Assembly: GCF_003003795.1 (NCBI RefSeq)
Contig: NZ_PVWK01000117.1
Span: 1 to 64,000 of the forward strand
Reading direction: 5' to 3'
DNA from: Stenomitos frigidus ULC18
Lineage (GTDB): Bacteria > Cyanobacteriota > Cyanobacteriia > Leptolyngbyales > Leptolyngbyaceae
Length of the DNA: 64,000 nucleotides
Shown: one piece after another, positions 20,462 to 35,729 of the stretch
Layout: each line of letters opens with the position of its first letter
Position numbering within the stretch: the first letter of the stretch is position 1
Made by a program: the position numbers and the translations under genes
Notes under the pieces: generated by a model
What the model saw: the letters and a program-made list of their open reading frames with translations, nothing else
Told to the model about the DNA's origin: nothing
Databases searched by the model: none

Positions 20462-21367
20462 ATGAAAATTTATAGCCCTCTCACTGGCTCTGATGATGTT
20501 ACGTTACTGAAAACAATTCAGTCAGAACAACTTGTTCGTGATTGGGCAAGAGACTTTCAGATCGATATAACTGAAGAATTGCATGGAAACAAAGAAATTT
20601 ATCTCTACAAATGCAATCAAACTCAGTTAAAGTTTTTCACGCCATCTAATATAGCAGGTTCAGGTGAACTATATAAAAAATTACAGCGAACTAGTCATTA
20701 TTACATGCCCGATCGCTGGGAACATAAAATAGCCCTAAAGGATTTATCAGATTGCCAGAAGGTTATCGAAATCGGTTCTGCATGGGGATATTTTGTTAAA
20801 TCAGGGCGTGAAATAGGTCTAGAAATTCGAGGCATTGAGTTAAATGAAGCGGCTGCTTTGTTTGCTCAAGGTCAAAATATTCCTATTGAGCGTTTAGATT
20901 TGAGGGAAGCAGCAATCTTGTACAAAGAATCACTAGATGCAGTTTGTAGTTTCCAGGTGCTTGAGCACGTAACAAACCCCAAAGATTTCATCGATTGGTC
21001 ATTGCAGATGCTAAAGCCAGGAGGGAAGTTAATCTGTTGTGTACCAAATTCAGACAGTTTTCTCAAATACCAGTACAACTTATTAGACTTACCTCCTCAC
21101 CACATGACTTTGTGGTCTGCCGGTTCCTTTAAATCATTAGAATCTCTTTTCCCAATCAAACTGGAAAAAACTGTTATTGAGCCATTAGCTCCTTATCATA
21201 CGGAAGGCTATTTGAGTGCTTATCGTGACCATCTTCGCAGCAAACACCCTACCGGTAAAGTCTTTCTTAATCGGTTTACCCTCCCTGTATTTAGAAAGAT
21301 TCTTAATGCTGGAGTAAGTTTTTTTTTGACAGGCCAAAGCTTGTATGTGCAGTTCCGGAAAATCTGA
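20462..21367 (+). CDS. SAM-dependent methyltransferase
   Basis: 301 residues. Class I fold with motif I KVIEIGSAWGYFVKSGRE (about 100-117), an acidic residue in RGIELNEAA, and LDAVCSFQVLEHVTNPKDF, then MLKPGGKLICCVPN. This is the Methyltransf_23 pattern. Position between wzt and another methyltransferase suggests it modifies a sugar of the exported glycan, perhaps the chain terminus read by the Wzt C-terminus; that part is inference. Its stop overlaps the next start by one base (TGATG). AT-rich compared with neighbours. Confidence 0.85.
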   Translation: MKIYSPLTGSDDVTLLKTIQSEQLVRDWARDFQIDITEELHGNKEIYLYKCNQTQLKFFTPSNIAGSGELYKKLQRTSHYYMPDRWEHKIALKDLSDCQKVIEIGSAWGYFVKSGREIGLEIRGIELNEAAALFAQGQNIPIERLDLREAAILYKESLDAVCSFQVLEHVTNPKDFIDWSLQMLKPGGKLICCVPNSDSFLKYQYNLLDLPPHHMTLWSAGSFKSLESLFPIKLEKTVIEPLAPYHTEGYLSAYRDHLRSKHPTGKVFLNRFTLPVFRKILNAGVSFFLTGQSLYVQFRKI

Positions 21368-22242
21368 TGAAATATCTTAATCTTGGTTGCGGTCGTCGAT
21401 TTCACTCTGATTGGACAAATATTGATTTTACTTCGACAGCTAAAGACGTTATTGCTCATGACTTGGGTCAGAGCATTCCTTTTCCTGAAAATTCATTTGA
21501 TGTAGTCTACCATTCCCATTTGTTAGAACATTTCTCAAAGCAGGCAGCTAAAGCATTTATCAAAGAATGTTGTCGTGTTTTACGTCCTGATGGCATTCTA
21601 AGGGTCGCAGTTCCCGATTTAGAGCAAATTGCTCACAGCTATTTAGCAGCACTAGAACTTGCACTTTCTGGTAGTCATGAAGGGGCTGCTAACTATGACT
21701 GGATACTATTAGAAATGTATGATCAGACTGCCAGAAATAAAGCAGGCGGAGAGATGCTTTATTATCTTCATCAAGAAAATATTCCAAATGTGGAGTATGT
21801 AATTAAACGCTGTAATAGCGAAATAAAGACGATTATTGAAATGGGGCAACGGCAGCGTGATTTGGATTCTTATCCTAAGAACTTTAAAGGGCAATTCAGA
21901 TCTTTATTGAAGCCGTTTTATTACTTCTTCCGCTATCCAAAATACCGTCGTGATCTTCTGCTTAAAATGCTTTTAGGTCAGGAGTTCAGTGCTCTAGAGA
22001 TTGGGCGTTTTCGTCAAAGTGGCGAAGTTCATTATTGGATGTACGATCGCTACTCTTTATCCCTTCTTTTGAGGCAATGTGGCTTAGAGAGTATCATGCA
22101 GAGAACTGCAACTGAAAGCTACATTCCAAACTGGTCTGACTGGCATCTTGATACTGAACCAGATGGCACTACTTATAAGCCTGATTCGCTTTTTGTAGAA
22201 GCTATTAAACCAACAAATTTCTCTTTATGTGCGGCATTGTAG
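21367..22242 (+). CDS. SAM-dependent methyltransferase
   Basis: 291 residues. Short N-terminus leading straight into motif I, MKYLNLGCGRRFHSDWTNID, followed by FDVVYHSHLLEHFSKQAA and VLRPDGILRVAVPDLE; these are the usual marks of small class I methyltransferases in polysaccharide loci. The central 100 residues are Tyr/Arg-rich and predicted helical. It overlaps the asnB-like start by 16 bases. Substrate unknown; a glycan methylation is the likely role given the operon. Confidence 0.85.
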   Translation: MKYLNLGCGRRFHSDWTNIDFTSTAKDVIAHDLGQSIPFPENSFDVVYHSHLLEHFSKQAAKAFIKECCRVLRPDGILRVAVPDLEQIAHSYLAALELALSGSHEGAANYDWILLEMYDQTARNKAGGEMLYYLHQENIPNVEYVIKRCNSEIKTIIEMGQRQRDLDSYPKNFKGQFRSLLKPFYYFFRYPKYRRDLLLKMLLGQEFSALEIGRFRQSGEVHYWMYDRYSLSLLLRQCGLESIMQRTATESYIPNWSDWHLDTEPDGTTYKPDSLFVEAIKPTNFSLCAAL

Positions 22243-30987: not shown

Positions 30988-30992
30988 GATCA

Positions 30993-31074
30993 TGGGCGGG
31001 GCGAGACTCGAACTCGCAAGCCTTTCGGCGCCGCATTTTGAGTGCGGTGCGTCTACCAATTCCGCCATCCGCCC
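30993..31074 (-). tRNA. tRNA-Leu(CAA)
   Basis: 82 nt ending with the A discriminator; CCA is not encoded. The 5' strand GGGCGGA pairs with CCCGCCC except at position 7. The anticodon stem CCGCA/TGCGG encloses loop CTCAAAA, giving anticodon CAA (reads UUG). The long variable arm and the TTCGAGT T-loop are typical of leucine tRNAs. The first 22 nt overlap the 21-nt repeat that recurs at the end of the M48 protease gene. Confidence 0.95.
31053..31073 (-). repeat. 21-nt direct repeat, copy in tRNA-Leu (possible attachment site)
   Basis: Positions 2-22 of the tRNA match 35709-35729 at 20 of 21 bases (the mismatch is 31062 versus 35718), in the same orientation. Together they flank the AT-rich island. 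Known integrases often use tRNA genes, but usually the 3' half; here the shared part is the 5' half. Confidence 0.5.
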
Positions 31075-31166
31075 ATGTATTTGTCTAATCATTATACTGG
31101 ATTGGGCAACTTTGGAGAAGCTCCTGATACTTTTGATTGCTTGCCAAATGAGGAAAAAGTCCCAAA

Positions 31167-31403
31167 TTGGCAGAAAAGCGATCGAAAGCTAGGACATCCA
31201 GCAGAAAGCTTGTCTTAGATGGTTTAGGGGTGAAATACCGCAAGCCTTACCAAACTCGATACACCGCATTAAGCCACATCGCACAGAATCATGGTTTGTT
31301 AGCGGCTGCTAAGGTGGCAGGACATAAATCGCTAAATATGGTCAGTCGTCACTATGCAAGGTATACAGGTGAGCTAAAGGACGTTATGCCGGAGTTTTTC
31401 TAA
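31167..31403 (+). pseudogene. Tyrosine recombinase, C-terminal remnant
   Basis: 78 residues with the end of a phage-type integrase catalytic domain: YRKPYQTRYTALSHIAQNHG (the second catalytic Arg is in QTRYT), AAAKVAGHKSLNMVSRHYAR (the His of GHKS, the Tyr nucleophile in HYAR or RYT). About 250-300 upstream residues, including the first catalytic Arg, are missing, so the gene is inactive. It lies just beyond the 5' end of tRNA-Leu, inside the island. Its last codons (YTGELKDVMPEF) recur at 32137-32187. Confidence 0.75.
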
Positions 31404-31471
31404 AGCAACTTAAAAAACTGTGGCAATGATTCTTAGATGGTTTTATTAGACCTTAAGCCTTTCTACTAGGC

Positions 31472-32008
31472 TTAAGGTTTTTTATCACTTGCAAGACGAG
31501 CCGCTAATTTTTGCGCTAAATCTCTCATCATAGTGTGGCAAGGCAATGCTACCTGTGCTTTAGTAAGGTCGATTGTATCAGCCTCACGATCCCAAACAAG
31601 ACCAGCATTAGAAAAAGCTTGATCTGAACTCATAATAGATTCAAATTCATTACGCCATGTTTTAGCCCTTTTTCCTCCATGTTTGTGGGCTACACCATTT
31701 CGGATATGTCGATATGCTTTTAACAACTTTTTCTCATCAGCAGTAAGCCACTCACCACGCATTTTTTCAGTTGTATAATCGTCGAAAATGGCGAAAAGAT
31801 ATACGAGAAGAACACCTTGAGTTAACCCGTTAACTTGGTTCTGAGCTTCTTCTCTATACTCAGAATTCTGATGTTCAACGCGCTTACCGCTCAGCAACCA
31901 ACCAAACTCATACTGGAATATAGTATCAAGCACTTGCATAAGTTCAAGTGCTTGATCTGTTTCCACCGGATTAAAGTACTTAGAAAGATATTTATCAGAG
32001 TCGATCAT
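31472..32008 (-). CDS. HEPN-like protein with an Rx4H motif
   Basis: 178 residues, mostly helical, no signal or membrane segment. Contains YRHIRNGVAHKHG (about 99-111): Arg103-NGVA-His108 fits the Rx4-6H motif of HEPN ribonucleases, at the expected place at the start of a helix. HEPN proteins are typically RNA-cutting toxins or defence effectors. AT-rich like the rest of the island and flanked on both sides by recombinase 3' ends. No partner MNT gene is adjacent; the 787-residue ATPase gene lies upstream on the same strand, 295 bases away, and may be linked. Function inferred from one motif only. Confidence 0.65.
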   Translation of the reverse strand: MIDSDKYLSKYFNPVETDQALELMQVLDTIFQYEFGWLLSGKRVEHQNSEYREEAQNQVNGLTQGVLLVYLFAIFDDYTTEKMRGEWLTADEKKLLKAYRHIRNGVAHKHGGKRAKTWRNEFESIMSSDQAFSNAGLVWDREADTIDLTKAQVALPCHTMMRDLAQKLAARLASDKKP

Positions 32009-32136
32009 TTATAGTTCCAACTACACGCAGCTAAGATATTTCTCGATCCAAGCTTATTTTACTCTATATAAACATAATTACAACGTCCCGTAATTCTTTT
32101 AGTCCATAGGAATTTTAATGCTTGGGTAAACTCACA

Positions 32137-32187
32137 TGCACAGGTGATCTAAAGGGAGTTATGCCACAATTTCTAAAGACACTTTAG
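32137..32187 (+). pseudogene. Second tyrosine-recombinase 3' end
   Basis: Reads TGDLKGVMPQFLKTL then TAG in one frame, closely matching TGELKDVMPEF at the end of the remnant at 31167-31403. The bases that follow are also similar (both have CTGTGGCAATG or TTGTGGCAATGG about 20 bases on). Nothing upstream of it looks like recombinase, so it is a fragment of a second, related element or a duplicated end. Confidence 0.6.
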
Positions 32188-32303
32188 AAATTGTGGCAAT
32201 GGTTACTTTCCTATAATTGTTTCTATTCCCTACTTTTGCTTATTCATCTACTCTCTTATTAAATTGCTAAACTTGTAATTAGAGAGCAAAGGTGTTTTTA
32301 GGC

Positions 32304-34667
32304 TTACTCAAATTCATTCGTTAAAGATAGGTATGGTAGGAGAGCATTATTAAGTTTATAGCGATTAGAGCTTAACTTCTTTGCCCTAGCATTAATCAGC
32401 TCCTTGCTGTCGAAAGCATATTCGAACTCAAATTGATTTTTTTCAACCTCTTTCCCAAGAATGGATAACGTTGATAAATGCTCGATTAAATTGTCTAGAA
32501 ACTCTTCAGATTCTGATAGATCTGCATCACACATAGCCACATATAAAGTTTCTTTATCAATAATATTCGGACAACTAACTAACTGATATAAAAACTCTTT
32601 GAGCTGATCTATGGTAACTCCATTTTCAACCAGCATGGAGAGGAAAGCCCAAGCTGAATAGTTTTCATAAGCAGTTTCTAAATCGTCTTCTTCAATTATC
32701 GAGTGTCCTCTTGAAATAGCATTCTCATGAGCATTTTTGAAGAAATAGATAATGTCTCTAGGTCTAGGTATTAACTTATCATAAATATAATCTTTTACTG
32801 GTACGTCTTTTACCGTCTTAACGATGTATTTCTCCCATAATGTACTGGCGAGCAGTTCGTTAACACTTAATTCGACAAATCTTTGTTCTATTATTCTAAA
32901 TAAAACATCTTTGTCACCTGACTTTAGAAGATTCGTATATTCTATTTTGTCTGGCTCTCTAGCAACACCAAGAATGTATTTAAATATATCGCTTCTTAGG
33001 AAGATAGTTAGATGAAAATCAATTTTCTTGGGTTGTCCTTTCACCGTAAAAGATGATAGTTCTCTAACAATCCTGCCTGTAACACCAAGTAAGCCTAAAA
33101 TCCATTCACTTTGAAGATTTAACTTGTTACCCTTTTTCCAGGATTTATCTAAATTATCTATAAGGACTAAAATTTTTCTATCCTTGTCAAATAGCTCTGC
33201 CAGGAAATTTCTTATTTTAGACAAAGTTTCATCATGCATGATCTCAGCTAACTTTATTTTAAATTCTGAAAATTTTTCACCTGTATTTATTATATTAGCT
33301 TGGCTAATTTTTTCTATCTCTTCCTCTAATCTTTCAGAGAAATCCTTTAAGAAAAGCTCAGAATTACTATCAATAAAATCTTTGAATGCTGTTTCTGTTG
33401 TAGTGAGTGCATATGAATGTTTTGAAGTGATTTTAAGATAAACAGATTTTGCAACCTCTGTATAGATTAAAAGCTTCCATGCGCTTTCAACTAAATAACT
33501 CTTTTCATATTCTTCTGAAGAAACCTGCAAGATTTTAACTAAAGCATCAATTTCAAAGTTTACAGGTTTAATAAGGCAAACATGATTTCTTGAATCTTTT
33601 TCTAAAAGGCTCTTTAAATAGTACAAAGTCGCCGTTTTTCCTGTCCCTTTTCTTCCAATAACTATGTTGTAGTCGTTCTTAATTAAAGCTGGAATGTTAA
33701 AGTTTTGGACATAATAGTATGGTAATTCCTCACTTTCATTCTCGGCTAAAAATTCACCAAAACTAATTTGTTGGAGTTTAGTCAACTCGTTCTTTATCTG
33801 CTGACTAGTTTTTTGTTGATAGATGTATTCTAAGAGCCTATCCTTAAGAGGCGCTAGAAAATCAGCTACAATCTCCTCACATCTTTTTTTACGATTATAC
33901 TTAACTAACAAATCTCTATAATCAATTGGTACTTCGTAAGGTTCTTCCGCCAACATCAAAAGATCTAAATTACAACCCAGAGCAAAACCCGCAATAAGTG
34001 AACATTTTGAGTTTTGAATTTGATAACCTGAACGATCTATAGAAGAAAATTCTATTAAAACGGCTTTATTCAACTTTTGCAGATACCACTCAAGAGGCTG
34101 TATTCTATTTTCTGACGCATCATCTGTGCTACAAGGGATTTTATATTTTAAAATTTGATTAGATATGGCTTGGCTGTAAATATTGTCAAATTGATTTTTT
34201 AGAAAAAGTAAAGGATGCCTACTATTATCTAAGCCCTGCTTCTGCTTCTTTTTTTGCTTTTCTTGTGTGGTATCATTGAAAATAAAAGAATTAAAAGCCG
34301 ACACAATATCTGTAGTATTTATGTAACTTTGGTAACCAGTTGTTGTCAAAGCTGAAAACTCTTTGTATCGTCTTACTGATTCAATATGTGTATTGTCAAA
34401 TATCAAAAATATTGCTTTATCCTTTGCCATCGCATAACCAAGCTCAAAAATAACATTGTCGCTAAAACCTGTTAGATCGACACAGAAATAATCAGCTTCG
34501 TCGATAGCTCTCGTTACTTCATCAATAATTAGCTTGCCGTTGATGGTCTGGCTTCTCCAAGATTTTAGCGAGGCAACCTGGGAACTATTGATCAATTTAA
34601 TTGCTTCTTCAATTGATTCACCAGATGATTTAGGTTGACTACTGTAAGCAAAGAAGCCAGTTTTCAT
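32304..34667 (-). CDS. Nucleoside-deoxyribosyltransferase/TIR-like domain fused to P-loop ATPase (Sll1717-type)
   Basis: 787 residues. N-terminus (1-130): FFAYSSQP, IDEADYFCVDLTGFSDNVIF and FELGYAMAKDKAIFLI, a Rossmann-like fold in which Glu75 stands where nucleoside deoxyribosyltransferases keep their catalytic Glu. 150-280: a second, weaker Rossmann-like unit (AVLIEFSSIDRSGYQI, CSLIAGFALG). ATPase: Walker A GRKGTGKT (338-345) and Walker B ILVLIDNLDKSW (499-510), then helical modules to the end (about 560-787) as in STAND-type proteins. The GRKGTGKT core is what is annotated as the Sll1717/FunZ family, from memory. AT-rich; likely acquired. I suggest a defence NTPase with an NAD- or nucleoside-processing effector; not shown. 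Confidence 0.8.
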   Translation of the reverse strand: MKTGFFAYSSQPKSSGESIEEAIKLINSSQVASLKSWRSQTINGKLIIDEVTRAIDEADYFCVDLTGFSDNVIFELGYAMAKDKAIFLIFDNTHIESVRRYKEFSALTTTGYQSYINTTDIVSAFNSFIFNDTTQEKQKKKQKQGLDNSRHPLLFLKNQFDNIYSQAISNQILKYKIPCSTDDASENRIQPLEWYLQKLNKAVLIEFSSIDRSGYQIQNSKCSLIAGFALGCNLDLLMLAEEPYEVPIDYRDLLVKYNRKKRCEEIVADFLAPLKDRLLEYIYQQKTSQQIKNELTKLQQISFGEFLAENESEELPYYYVQNFNIPALIKNDYNIVIGRKGTGKTATLYYLKSLLEKDSRNHVCLIKPVNFEIDALVKILQVSSEEYEKSYLVESAWKLLIYTEVAKSVYLKITSKHSYALTTTETAFKDFIDSNSELFLKDFSERLEEEIEKISQANIINTGEKFSEFKIKLAEIMHDETLSKIRNFLAELFDKDRKILVLIDNLDKSWKKGNKLNLQSEWILGLLGVTGRIVRELSSFTVKGQPKKIDFHLTIFLRSDIFKYILGVAREPDKIEYTNLLKSGDKDVLFRIIEQRFVELSVNELLASTLWEKYIVKTVKDVPVKDYIYDKLIPRPRDIIYFFKNAHENAISRGHSIIEEDDLETAYENYSAWAFLSMLVENGVTIDQLKEFLYQLVSCPNIIDKETLYVAMCDADLSESEEFLDNLIEHLSTLSILGKEVEKNQFEFEYAFDSKELINARAKKLSSNRYKLNNALLPYLSLTNEFE

Positions 34668-34969
34668 ACCGCTAAACCCTTAAGGAGAGACGATTTGTAA
34701 GCGTTATTTTAACGCAATTACTTAAACTGGGAACATTCTTCCAACTGGCTTTACATTTTATAAATTCCTTTTCACTTAAATTGCACTTCTGCCACAGCCG
34801 CAGAAGTGCGAGTTTGATTAGAACGCCCGAGAAACTTTAACCACAGGGATCTTCAGCTTTAGCTTTTAAATGCTTTTAGATTTTGGGCTAGATTTGCAAT
34901 AAACCAGCTAATAAGTAGCAGTAGGGTGAGCAGTGTCCACCCTACTAGATCTGACTTTGCACCTAGGAT
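34668..34969. other. Intergenic region with two hairpins
   Basis: Two inverted repeats: GCACTTCTGC/GCAGAAGTGC (34783-34792 and 34800-34809), and GTAGGGTG/CACCCTAC (34921-34928 and 34938-34945). The second lies 25 bases after the stop of the next minus-strand gene and may end its transcript, though no T-run follows. The promoter of the ATPase gene should lie near 34670-34740. Confidence 0.5.
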
Positions 34970-35416
34970 TTAGTTGCCAAAGGCATCTTTGATATTGTCA
35001 ACAGCGCTTTCAACAGCATTTTTGGTTTTGTCAATCGCGTTTTGAGTGCGAGCCGAGTCTTTGTCAGCTTTGCGCTCAATTCTAGCGGCGTCTTTCTTAG
35101 CTTTGCGTCCGATGGCACTATCGTTGTCTGTGGCGCGATCGACCTTGGCAGCATTGGTTTTTGCTGTCTTCTTCAGCTTATCGGTCGTGTCGCGAACGAA
35201 CCCTTTAGTGCGTCCAGCATCTTTACTGGCTTTCCCTTGTAATTCACTGCCTGCATCCGCTGCCGCAATCAAGTTGCTAGCAGGAGCCGCGATCGCTGCA
35301 TTGCTTGAGAAAAACGCACCTTGCCAAGTAAACGCGATCGCCGACACGCAGAGCAGTGCAGTCGTCAACCAACGCCCGATCGTCGATACCCGTTTTGTAA
35401 AATAATTCAGTTTCAT
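34970..35416 (-). CDS. Exported Lys/Ala-rich, coiled repeat protein
   Basis: 148 residues from the ATG at 35416 (MKLNYFTKRVSTIGRWL). Signal peptide ends near SNAAIAAPA. The mature part is low-complexity and strongly charged, with repeated KDAxR/KxDKDSA units (for example KKDAARIERKADKDSARTQN), predicted as long amphipathic helices, as in LEA-like or envelope stress proteins. An ATG three codons upstream is another possible start. Lies within the stretch bounded by the 21-nt repeats but its codon use is less AT-rich than the ATPase gene. Function unknown. Confidence 0.65.
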   Translation of the reverse strand: MKLNYFTKRVSTIGRWLTTALLCVSAIAFTWQGAFFSSNAAIAAPASNLIAAADAGSELQGKASKDAGRTKGFVRDTTDKLKKTAKTNAAKVDRATDNDSAIGRKAKKDAARIERKADKDSARTQNAIDKTKNAVESAVDNIKDAFGN

Positions 35417-35708: not shown

Positions 35709-35729
35709 CTACCAATTGCGCCATCCGCC
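35709..35729 (-). repeat. 21-nt direct repeat, copy at the end of the M48 gene (possible attachment site)
   Basis: The last seven codons of the M48 gene including its TAG match positions 2-22 of tRNA-Leu (31053-31073) with a single mismatch. It marks the far edge of the AT-rich island. The encoded tail GGWRNW may itself be a conserved C-terminus in this protein family, so chance cannot be excluded. Confidence 0.5.

What the first reader, a model, noticed from the sequence alone, without database searches (positions are those of the whole stretch)
32304..34667. 787-residue protein joining an NDT/TIR-like domain to a P-loop ATPase: candidate defence effector-switch
N-terminus has the IDEADYFCVDLT...FELGYAMA pattern with Glu75 at the catalytic Glu place of nucleoside deoxyribosyltransferase folds (related to TIR); the middle has Walker A (338-345) and Walker B (499-510) and long helical modules follow. 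NAD-cutting or nucleoside-acting domains fused to STAND-like NTPases are typical of abortive-infection systems. The gene lies in a recombinase-linked AT-rich island next to a HEPN gene. I know no described system with this exact pair.
Basis: partly seen in the sequence, partly recalled or inferred. Interest (0 to 1): 0.75.

Follow-up and report, generated by a model that had tools for sequence, protein, structure and literature searches.

The report
NDT/TIR-like enzyme fused to ORC-like ATPase
A recently acquired island in this cyanobacterium carries an intact protein in which a probable nucleotide- or NAD-cutting enzyme is joined to an ATP-driven switch; full-length versions occur sparsely on plasmids, prophages and islands in about 19 phyla, so it is probably an untested anti-phage defence gene.

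Summary
The ORF is real: 32304-34667, minus strand, 787 aa, under strong purifying selection. Residues 1-132 form an NDT/DNPH1-like (TIR-related) domain. Glu75 is invariant in 79 of 79 full-length relatives and aligns with the catalytic Glu of DNPH1/Rcl. The second catalytic Asp of DNPH1 is replaced by Ile/Val in 79 of 79, so this is not a standard deoxynucleotide hydrolase. Residues 303-780 are a named but unstudied P-loop family (NCBIfam ATPase_Sll1717). The predicted fold is ORC/Cdc6-like AAA+, with intact Walker motifs, rather than classical STAND. Full-length relatives span about 19 phyla, patchily, on plasmids, prophages and islands, often beside restriction or other defence genes and without any conserved partner. 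Here the gene lies in a 3.85-kb insert next to tRNA-Leu(CAA) that is absent from three same-genus genomes. The HEPN neighbour is not conserved; the 'recombinase' is a 78-aa integrase remnant. Best reading: a stand-alone defence effector-switch whose N-glycosidase/NADase domain is gated by the ATPase. Defence and substrate are inferred, not shown. No described system with this architecture was found in held papers or PADLOC.

The parts
32304..34667 (-). 787-aa gene: NDT/TIR-like domain, degenerate NDT-like domain, Sll1717-family ATPase
34272..34667 (-). residues 1-132: NDT/DNPH1-like (TIR-related) domain
   Evidence: PF05014 in 53 of 79 relatives; profile match to DNPH1/Rcl E=4.6e-5; Foldseek DNPH1 TM(target) 0.69-0.70, prob 1.00
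34443..34445 (-). Glu75 codon, predicted catalytic Glu
   Evidence: E in 79/79; aligned with the YELG Glu of Rcl/DNPH1
33798..34220 (-). residues 150-290: second NDT-like domain plus linker helix, no Glu at the equivalent place (Ile225)
   Evidence: AF2 model pLDDT 94; hhalign domain 2 vs domain 1 E=4e-5, prob 70%; column 225 mainly V/I/L/F, no E among the residues listed
32328..33761 (-). residues 303-780: Sll1717-family P-loop ATPase
   Evidence: NF047389 E=1.7e-69, 235 bits against a cut-off of 75; ORC2/Cdc6 and archaeal AAA+ fold
33633..33656 (-). Walker A GRKGTGKT (338-345)
   Evidence: G338, G343, K344 invariant
33138..33173 (-). Walker B ILVLIDNLDKSW (499-510)
   Evidence: D504, D507, W510 invariant
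32757..32765 (-). RPR motif 635-637, possible sensor-2-like arginines
   Evidence: P636, R637 invariant, R635 78/79; role inferred
32162..32198 (-). perfect 17-bp inverted repeat, 3-nt loop, downstream of the stop codon; probable terminator
   Evidence: RNA fold -24.8 kcal/mol, z=-6
31118..34970 (.). strain-specific AT-rich insert between tRNA-Leu(CAA) and a conserved small gene
   Evidence: three same-genus genomes have 92-240 bp here; GC profile
31472..32008 (-). 178-aa HEPN-like gene, independent island cargo
   Evidence: R-x4-H motif RNGVAH; sub-threshold Pfam hits; no relative in 291 other cyanobacterial genomes, plasmids or phages
31167..31403 (+). C-terminal remnant (78 aa) of a tyrosine integrase
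   Evidence: tblastn to site-specific integrase, E=1e-5
30992..31075 (-). tRNA-Leu(CAA) flanking the island

Best explanation
A stand-alone, horizontally moving defence gene of the 'effector plus ATPase switch' kind. Domain 1 is a glycosidic-bond-cleaving enzyme (Glu75), most likely acting on NAD+ or a related nucleotide, as TIR and TIR-like domains do. Domain 2 is a catalytically dead copy that pairs with or covers domain 1, holding it inactive or binding a ligand. The Sll1717/ORC-like AAA+ module with its helical C-terminal part senses a phage- or damage-derived trigger and, through ATP-driven assembly or rearrangement, releases domain 1, which depletes its substrate and stops the infected cell. 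Shown: domain content, invariance of catalytic and ATPase residues, purifying selection, mobility, patchy distribution, absence of a conserved partner. Inferred: substrate, autoinhibition by domain 2, assembly, trigger, anti-phage outcome.
For: Glu75, Asn71, Trp37 and Gly77 are invariant in 79 of 79 relatives across about 19 phyla. The domain-1 profile matches DNPH1/Rcl with Glu on Glu, and the fold matches DNPH1 and NDT, with TIR-STING also listed. The DNPH1 catalytic Asp (D80 human, D69 rat) is Ile/Val in 79 of 79, which leaves a Glu-only site as in TIR NADases. ATPase motifs are invariant. dN/dS is far below 1 in every domain. Plasmid, prophage or island homes. Neighbours match 152 PADLOC families in 140 genes against 9 in 127 control genes from the same genomes. 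No neighbour family is shared by more than 4 of 91 loci, so the gene acts alone. The cyanobacterial protein groups inside a Bacteroidota/Thermodesulfobacteriota clade. Only 3 of 292 cyanobacterial genomes carry the full N-terminal module. A related design, DUF4062/Swarozyc, is an experimentally shown TIR/NDT-like NADase defence (PMC13174449), and NDT domains were proposed as Abi toxins in 2013 (PMC3710099).
Against: No experiment. The PADLOC family count overstates enrichment: one type IIG enzyme matches up to 36 models, so the real number of defence neighbours is perhaps 10 of 140. Some relatives sit beside metabolic genes. Domain 1 is nearer in sequence to NDT/DNPH1 than to TIR (53 against 3 of 79 members), so NAD+ is not the only candidate. 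The ATPase also exists without domain 1, so it could have a role of its own.
Confidence: 0.6

Rival explanations
1. Same switch logic, but the effector acts on (deoxy)nucleotides or on bases in DNA (DNPH1/NDT-like N-glycosidase) rather than on NAD+: it removes phage nucleotides, modified ones for example, or makes abasic DNA.
For: Best sequence and fold matches are DNPH1 and NDT, not TIR; Anantharaman et al. proposed base removal for Abi-linked NDTs.
Against: The catalytic Asp of DNPH1 is Ile/Val in all 79 sequences.
Confidence: 0.2
2. Domain 1 makes a nucleotide signal (Thoeris ThsB-like) for a separate effector such as the 8xMP membrane protein beside some copies.
For: An 8xMP gene lies next to the gene in two Leptolyngbya loci and a ThsB-TIR/8xMP pair beside two others.
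Against: Only 4 of 91 loci have an 8xMP in the recurrent-neighbour set, and two of these have their own ThsB-TIR; the window has none.
Confidence: 0.07
3. Not defence: an ORC-like ATPase for maintenance or transfer of mobile elements, with the NDT-like pair as a nucleotide-sensing domain.
For: ORC/Cdc6-like fold; frequent plasmid and transposon location; ATPase-only relatives next to resolvase in Tn3-type units.
Against: No partner conserved with replication, partition or transfer genes; many copies are on chromosome-sized contigs; the Glu is strictly kept.
Confidence: 0.1

Closest known systems
Swarozyc / DUF4062 TIR-like NADases (PMC13174449)
   Same: TIR/NDT-related domain with one catalytic Glu, fused to an auxiliary sensor; patchy, mobile, single-gene; in eukaryotes (TEP1, NWD1) joined to a NACHT ATPase
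   Different: The window protein has no DUF4062 Pfam match, a second dead NDT-like copy, and an ORC-like Sll1717 ATPase; its activity is untested
NCBIfam NF047389, P-loop ATPase, Sll1717 family
   Same: Residues 303-780 match over the full model, E=1.7e-69
   Different: The family name covers the ATPase only; it also occurs alone (~500 aa) or after a ParA/MinD-like domain (~900 aa); function unknown
DNPH1/Rcl and nucleoside 2-deoxyribosyltransferases (PF05014)
   Same: Fold of domain 1 and the catalytic Glu
   Different: The catalytic Asp is replaced by Ile/Val in 79 of 79; fused to a dead copy and an ATPase
Retrons with NDT-like effector (such as Retron-Eco1/Ec86)
   Same: NDT-like domain as the toxic part of an anti-phage system (NDT-like retron effector genes are noted in PMC12548924; details from own knowledge)
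   Different: No reverse transcriptase or ncRNA was seen beside the gene in the window; the switch is an ATPase in the same chain
Abi proteins AbiJ-NTD1 plus NDT (PMC3710099)
   Same: NDT domain proposed as a suicide toxin in an Abi-like fusion
   Different: The partner is a small N-terminal Abi domain, not an ATPase
TIR-STAND / Avs-type NTPases (own knowledge)
   Same: Effector plus P-loop switch architecture
   Different: ATPase of ORC/Cdc6-like AAA+ type; no repeat sensor of STAND kind identified

Membership tests
Sll1717-family P-loop ATPase (NF047389) | Match above the curated cut-off over the whole model, intact Walker A and B | tested here: met
   235 bits against 75, positions 1-454; invariant G343, K344, D504
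Nucleoside deoxyribosyltransferase / DNPH1 (PF05014) | NDT fold and catalytic Glu | tested here: met
   the window protein itself is below the Pfam cut-off (20.4 against 28.8 bits), but 53 of 79 relatives reach E<=1e-3
Nucleoside deoxyribosyltransferase / DNPH1 (PF05014) | Second catalytic Asp (DNPH1 D80, Rcl D69) | tested here: not met
   aligned position is I or V in 79/79
Canonical TIR (PF01582, PF13676) | Match to TIR profiles | tested here: not met
   no TIR or TIR_2 hit; only weak CAP12-PCTIR_TIR, 18-21 bits against 24.7
Canonical TIR (PF01582, PF13676) | NAD+ cleavage | not testable with these tools
   needs a biochemical assay
Swarozyc (DUF4062) | DUF4062 domain | tested here: not met
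   no DUF4062 hit in Pfam
STAND NTPase | NACHT/NB-ARC/STAND profile plus repeat sensor | tested here: not met
   only sub-threshold nSTAND_NTPase5 (E=0.23); fold matches are ORC2/Cdc6 and archaeal AAA+
Known defence systems of PADLOC | Match to a system protein | tested here: not met
   only weak hits, E about 0.01
Anti-phage defence system | Protection against phage | not testable with these tools
   experiment needed

The most novel reading that the evidence does not exclude
A widespread, undescribed single-gene bacterial immune family in which a catalytically dead twin of the NDT/TIR-like effector domain is built in as the safety catch or ligand sensor, and an ORC/Cdc6-like ATPase, not a STAND, is the trigger.
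Probability: 0.4. Interest if true: 0.78.

Novelty: new variant of a known kind. Interest (0 to 1): 0.62.

Why it matters
If true, it adds a family present in at least some 320 sampled genome loci and about 19 phyla to bacterial immunity. It links the NDT/DNPH1 branch of the TIR-like superfamily to defence, and it gives a clean test of how a dead twin domain and an ORC-like ATPase can gate a suicide enzyme. It also gives a first functional hypothesis for one architecture of the Sll1717 ATPases, a family with no paper in the held library.

Tried and rejected
HEPN plus NDT pair: rejected, no relative of the HEPN gene near any homologue, on plasmids or phages, or in 291 other cyanobacterial genomes. 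Island borders as tRNA-derived att sites: a 20/21 copy of the tRNA-Leu 5' end lies at 35709-35729, but it is the conserved 3' end of a peptidase gene that relatives share to its last residue, so it was set aside. Complete recombinase in the island: only a remnant. Conserved operon partner: none. Single-sequence scan of genome contigs gave nothing; the profile from distant homologues worked. Sequence search of solved structures with the single protein gave only chance hits. Papers on Sll1717, 8xMP, and NDT with ATPase defence: none describing this architecture. The PADLOC enrichment figure was checked and found inflated by redundant models.

Full report
Observation. It is a functional gene: against the 70-73% identical copies from other cyanobacteria, dN is about 0.17-0.19 while dS is above 2 or saturated. 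The same holds for each domain taken alone, dN 0.14-0.22 with dS above 1.

Domain 1. Single-sequence Pfam hits are weak (Nuc_deoxyrib_tr 20.4 bits, CAP12-PCTIR_TIR 18.1 bits), but 53 of 79 full-length relatives match PF05014. A profile of the N-terminal region finds DNPH1/Rcl in the PDB at E=4.6e-5, with Glu75 on the YELG glutamate. An AlphaFold2 model of residues 1-290 (pLDDT 94, pTM 0.92) matches DNPH1 (TM by target 0.69-0.70, probability 1.00) and NDTs in Foldseek, with TIR-STING also among the hits. W37, N71, E75 and G77 are invariant in 79 of 79. One defining feature of DNPH1 is missing. The Asp altered in the DNPH1 D80A and D80N structures (Asp in wild-type Rcl, 2khz) aligns with V51, which is Ile or Val in all 79. 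The domain is therefore NDT-like by fold but has a Glu-only site like TIR domains (the latter from general knowledge).

Domain 2. Residues 150-260 form a second alternating alpha/beta domain, followed by a long helix. Profile comparison aligns its invariant G227 region with the G77 region of domain 1 (hhalign E=4e-5, 70%). The column matching Glu75 holds mainly Val, Ile, Leu or Phe, and no Glu appears among the residues listed. It is best read as a dead duplicate. G227 and D249 are invariant, so it is under constraint, not decaying. Its role as safety catch or ligand sensor is inference.

ATPase. Residues 303-780 match NCBIfam ATPase_Sll1717 end to end (E=1.7e-69). The full-length model (pLDDT 91, pTM 0.88) resembles archaeal ORC2, Cdc6/Orc1 and the archaeal AAA+ protein Sso1545. 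Relatives of the ATPase hit Pfam ORC-CDC6-like just below its cut-off. STAND profiles are only sub-threshold. In cyanobacteria the ATPase occurs in 34 of 292 genomes, in three main forms: alone (about 500 aa), after a ParA/MinD-like domain (about 900 aa), and after the NDT pair. The NDT pair itself is in 3 of 292 (the other matches there are short). The own genome has a second, ATPase-only copy.

Distribution. A profile search of genome contigs found 322 relatives among the candidates, with the 80 best kept, and 9 long matches on viral contigs. The tree covers 19 phyla, including an archaeon. The window protein groups inside a Bacteroidota/Thermodesulfobacteriota set (99 and 97 support in a quick tree), and several phyla are split. 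Plasmid copies occur in Leptolyngbya, Leptospira, Rhodococcus, Paraburkholderia, Ochrobactrum, Rhizobium, Mesorhizobium and Ensifer, several next to transposases, integrases or toxin-antitoxin genes. Some viral-contig copies lie beside endolysin and tail genes.

Neighbourhood. Of 140 immediate neighbours at 35 loci, PADLOC gave matches to 152 families (type IIG and IV restriction, GajB, reverse-transcriptase/helicase and others). Of 127 genes drawn at random from the same genomes it gave 9. The contrast is real in kind but inflated in number, because one type IIG protein can match up to 36 models. Pfam shows the same contrast: restriction and transposition families against ABC transporters, thioredoxins and kinases. 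No neighbour family occurs at more than 4 of 91 loci, so the gene is a stand-alone unit. Recurrent neighbours include ThsB-TIR and 8xMP genes.

The island. Three same-genus genomes have 92-240 bp between tRNA-Leu(CAA) and the conserved small gene at 34970, where the window has about 3.85 kb. The insert (31118-34970) holds an integrase C-terminal remnant, the HEPN-like gene and the 787-aa gene, with a strong terminator-like hairpin after the latter. The HEPN gene has no relative near any homologue, on plasmids, in phages, or in 291 other cyanobacterial genomes, so the two genes are not a system.

Mechanism. Most likely the ATPase, with its C-terminal helical part, senses a trigger and releases domain 1, which cuts a glycosidic bond, probably in NAD+ or a related nucleotide, and stops the infected cell. 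Steps shown: domain content, conserved catalytic residues, selection, mobility. Steps inferred: substrate, gating by domain 2, trigger and protection.

Known relatives. The closest published case is Swarozyc (DUF4062), a TIR/NDT-related NADase defence whose eukaryotic cousins join a NACHT ATPase (PMC13174449). NDT domains were proposed as Abi toxins in 2013 (PMC3710099). NDT-like retron effector genes are noted in PMC12548924. No held paper describes this architecture and PADLOC has no model for it. I therefore call it a new variant of a known kind: effector plus ATPase switch, with an unusual effector pair and an unusual ATPase.

Noticed in passing
window 35709-35729 and 31053-31073: The last seven codons of the M48 peptidase gene (GGWRNW plus stop) match the first 21 nt of tRNA-Leu(CAA) at 20 of 21 positions; the peptidase end is conserved in relatives, so it is probably chance, but a neat potential recombination site.
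   Followed up: partly
window 31397-31431 and 32162-32204: A near copy of one arm of the hairpin behind the 787-aa gene lies behind the HEPN-like gene; repeated terminator-like or small mobile element.
   Followed up: partly
L050:6526-7367, L065:6916-7810, L010:11405-12001, L019:2061-2711: ThsB-TIR plus 8xMP gene pairs next to two homologues, and a lone 8xMP gene convergent with two Leptolyngbya homologues.
   Followed up: partly
L208:820-2916 and L207:3980-6076: Sll1717-type ATPase (698 aa) directly behind a resolvase (with a Tn3 transposase nearby in L207) on E. coli and Enterobacter plasmids; many further enterobacterial plasmids match; the rest of its chain has no Pfam match and its role is unknown.
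   Followed up: partly
L172:1447-4134 and L171:211-2895: About 900-aa cyanobacterial proteins joining a ParA/MinD-like P-loop domain to the Sll1717 ATPase; undescribed architecture.
   Followed up: no
window 20462-22242: A second AT-rich patch (38-39% GC) with two methyltransferase-like genes inside the polysaccharide cluster.
   Followed up: no
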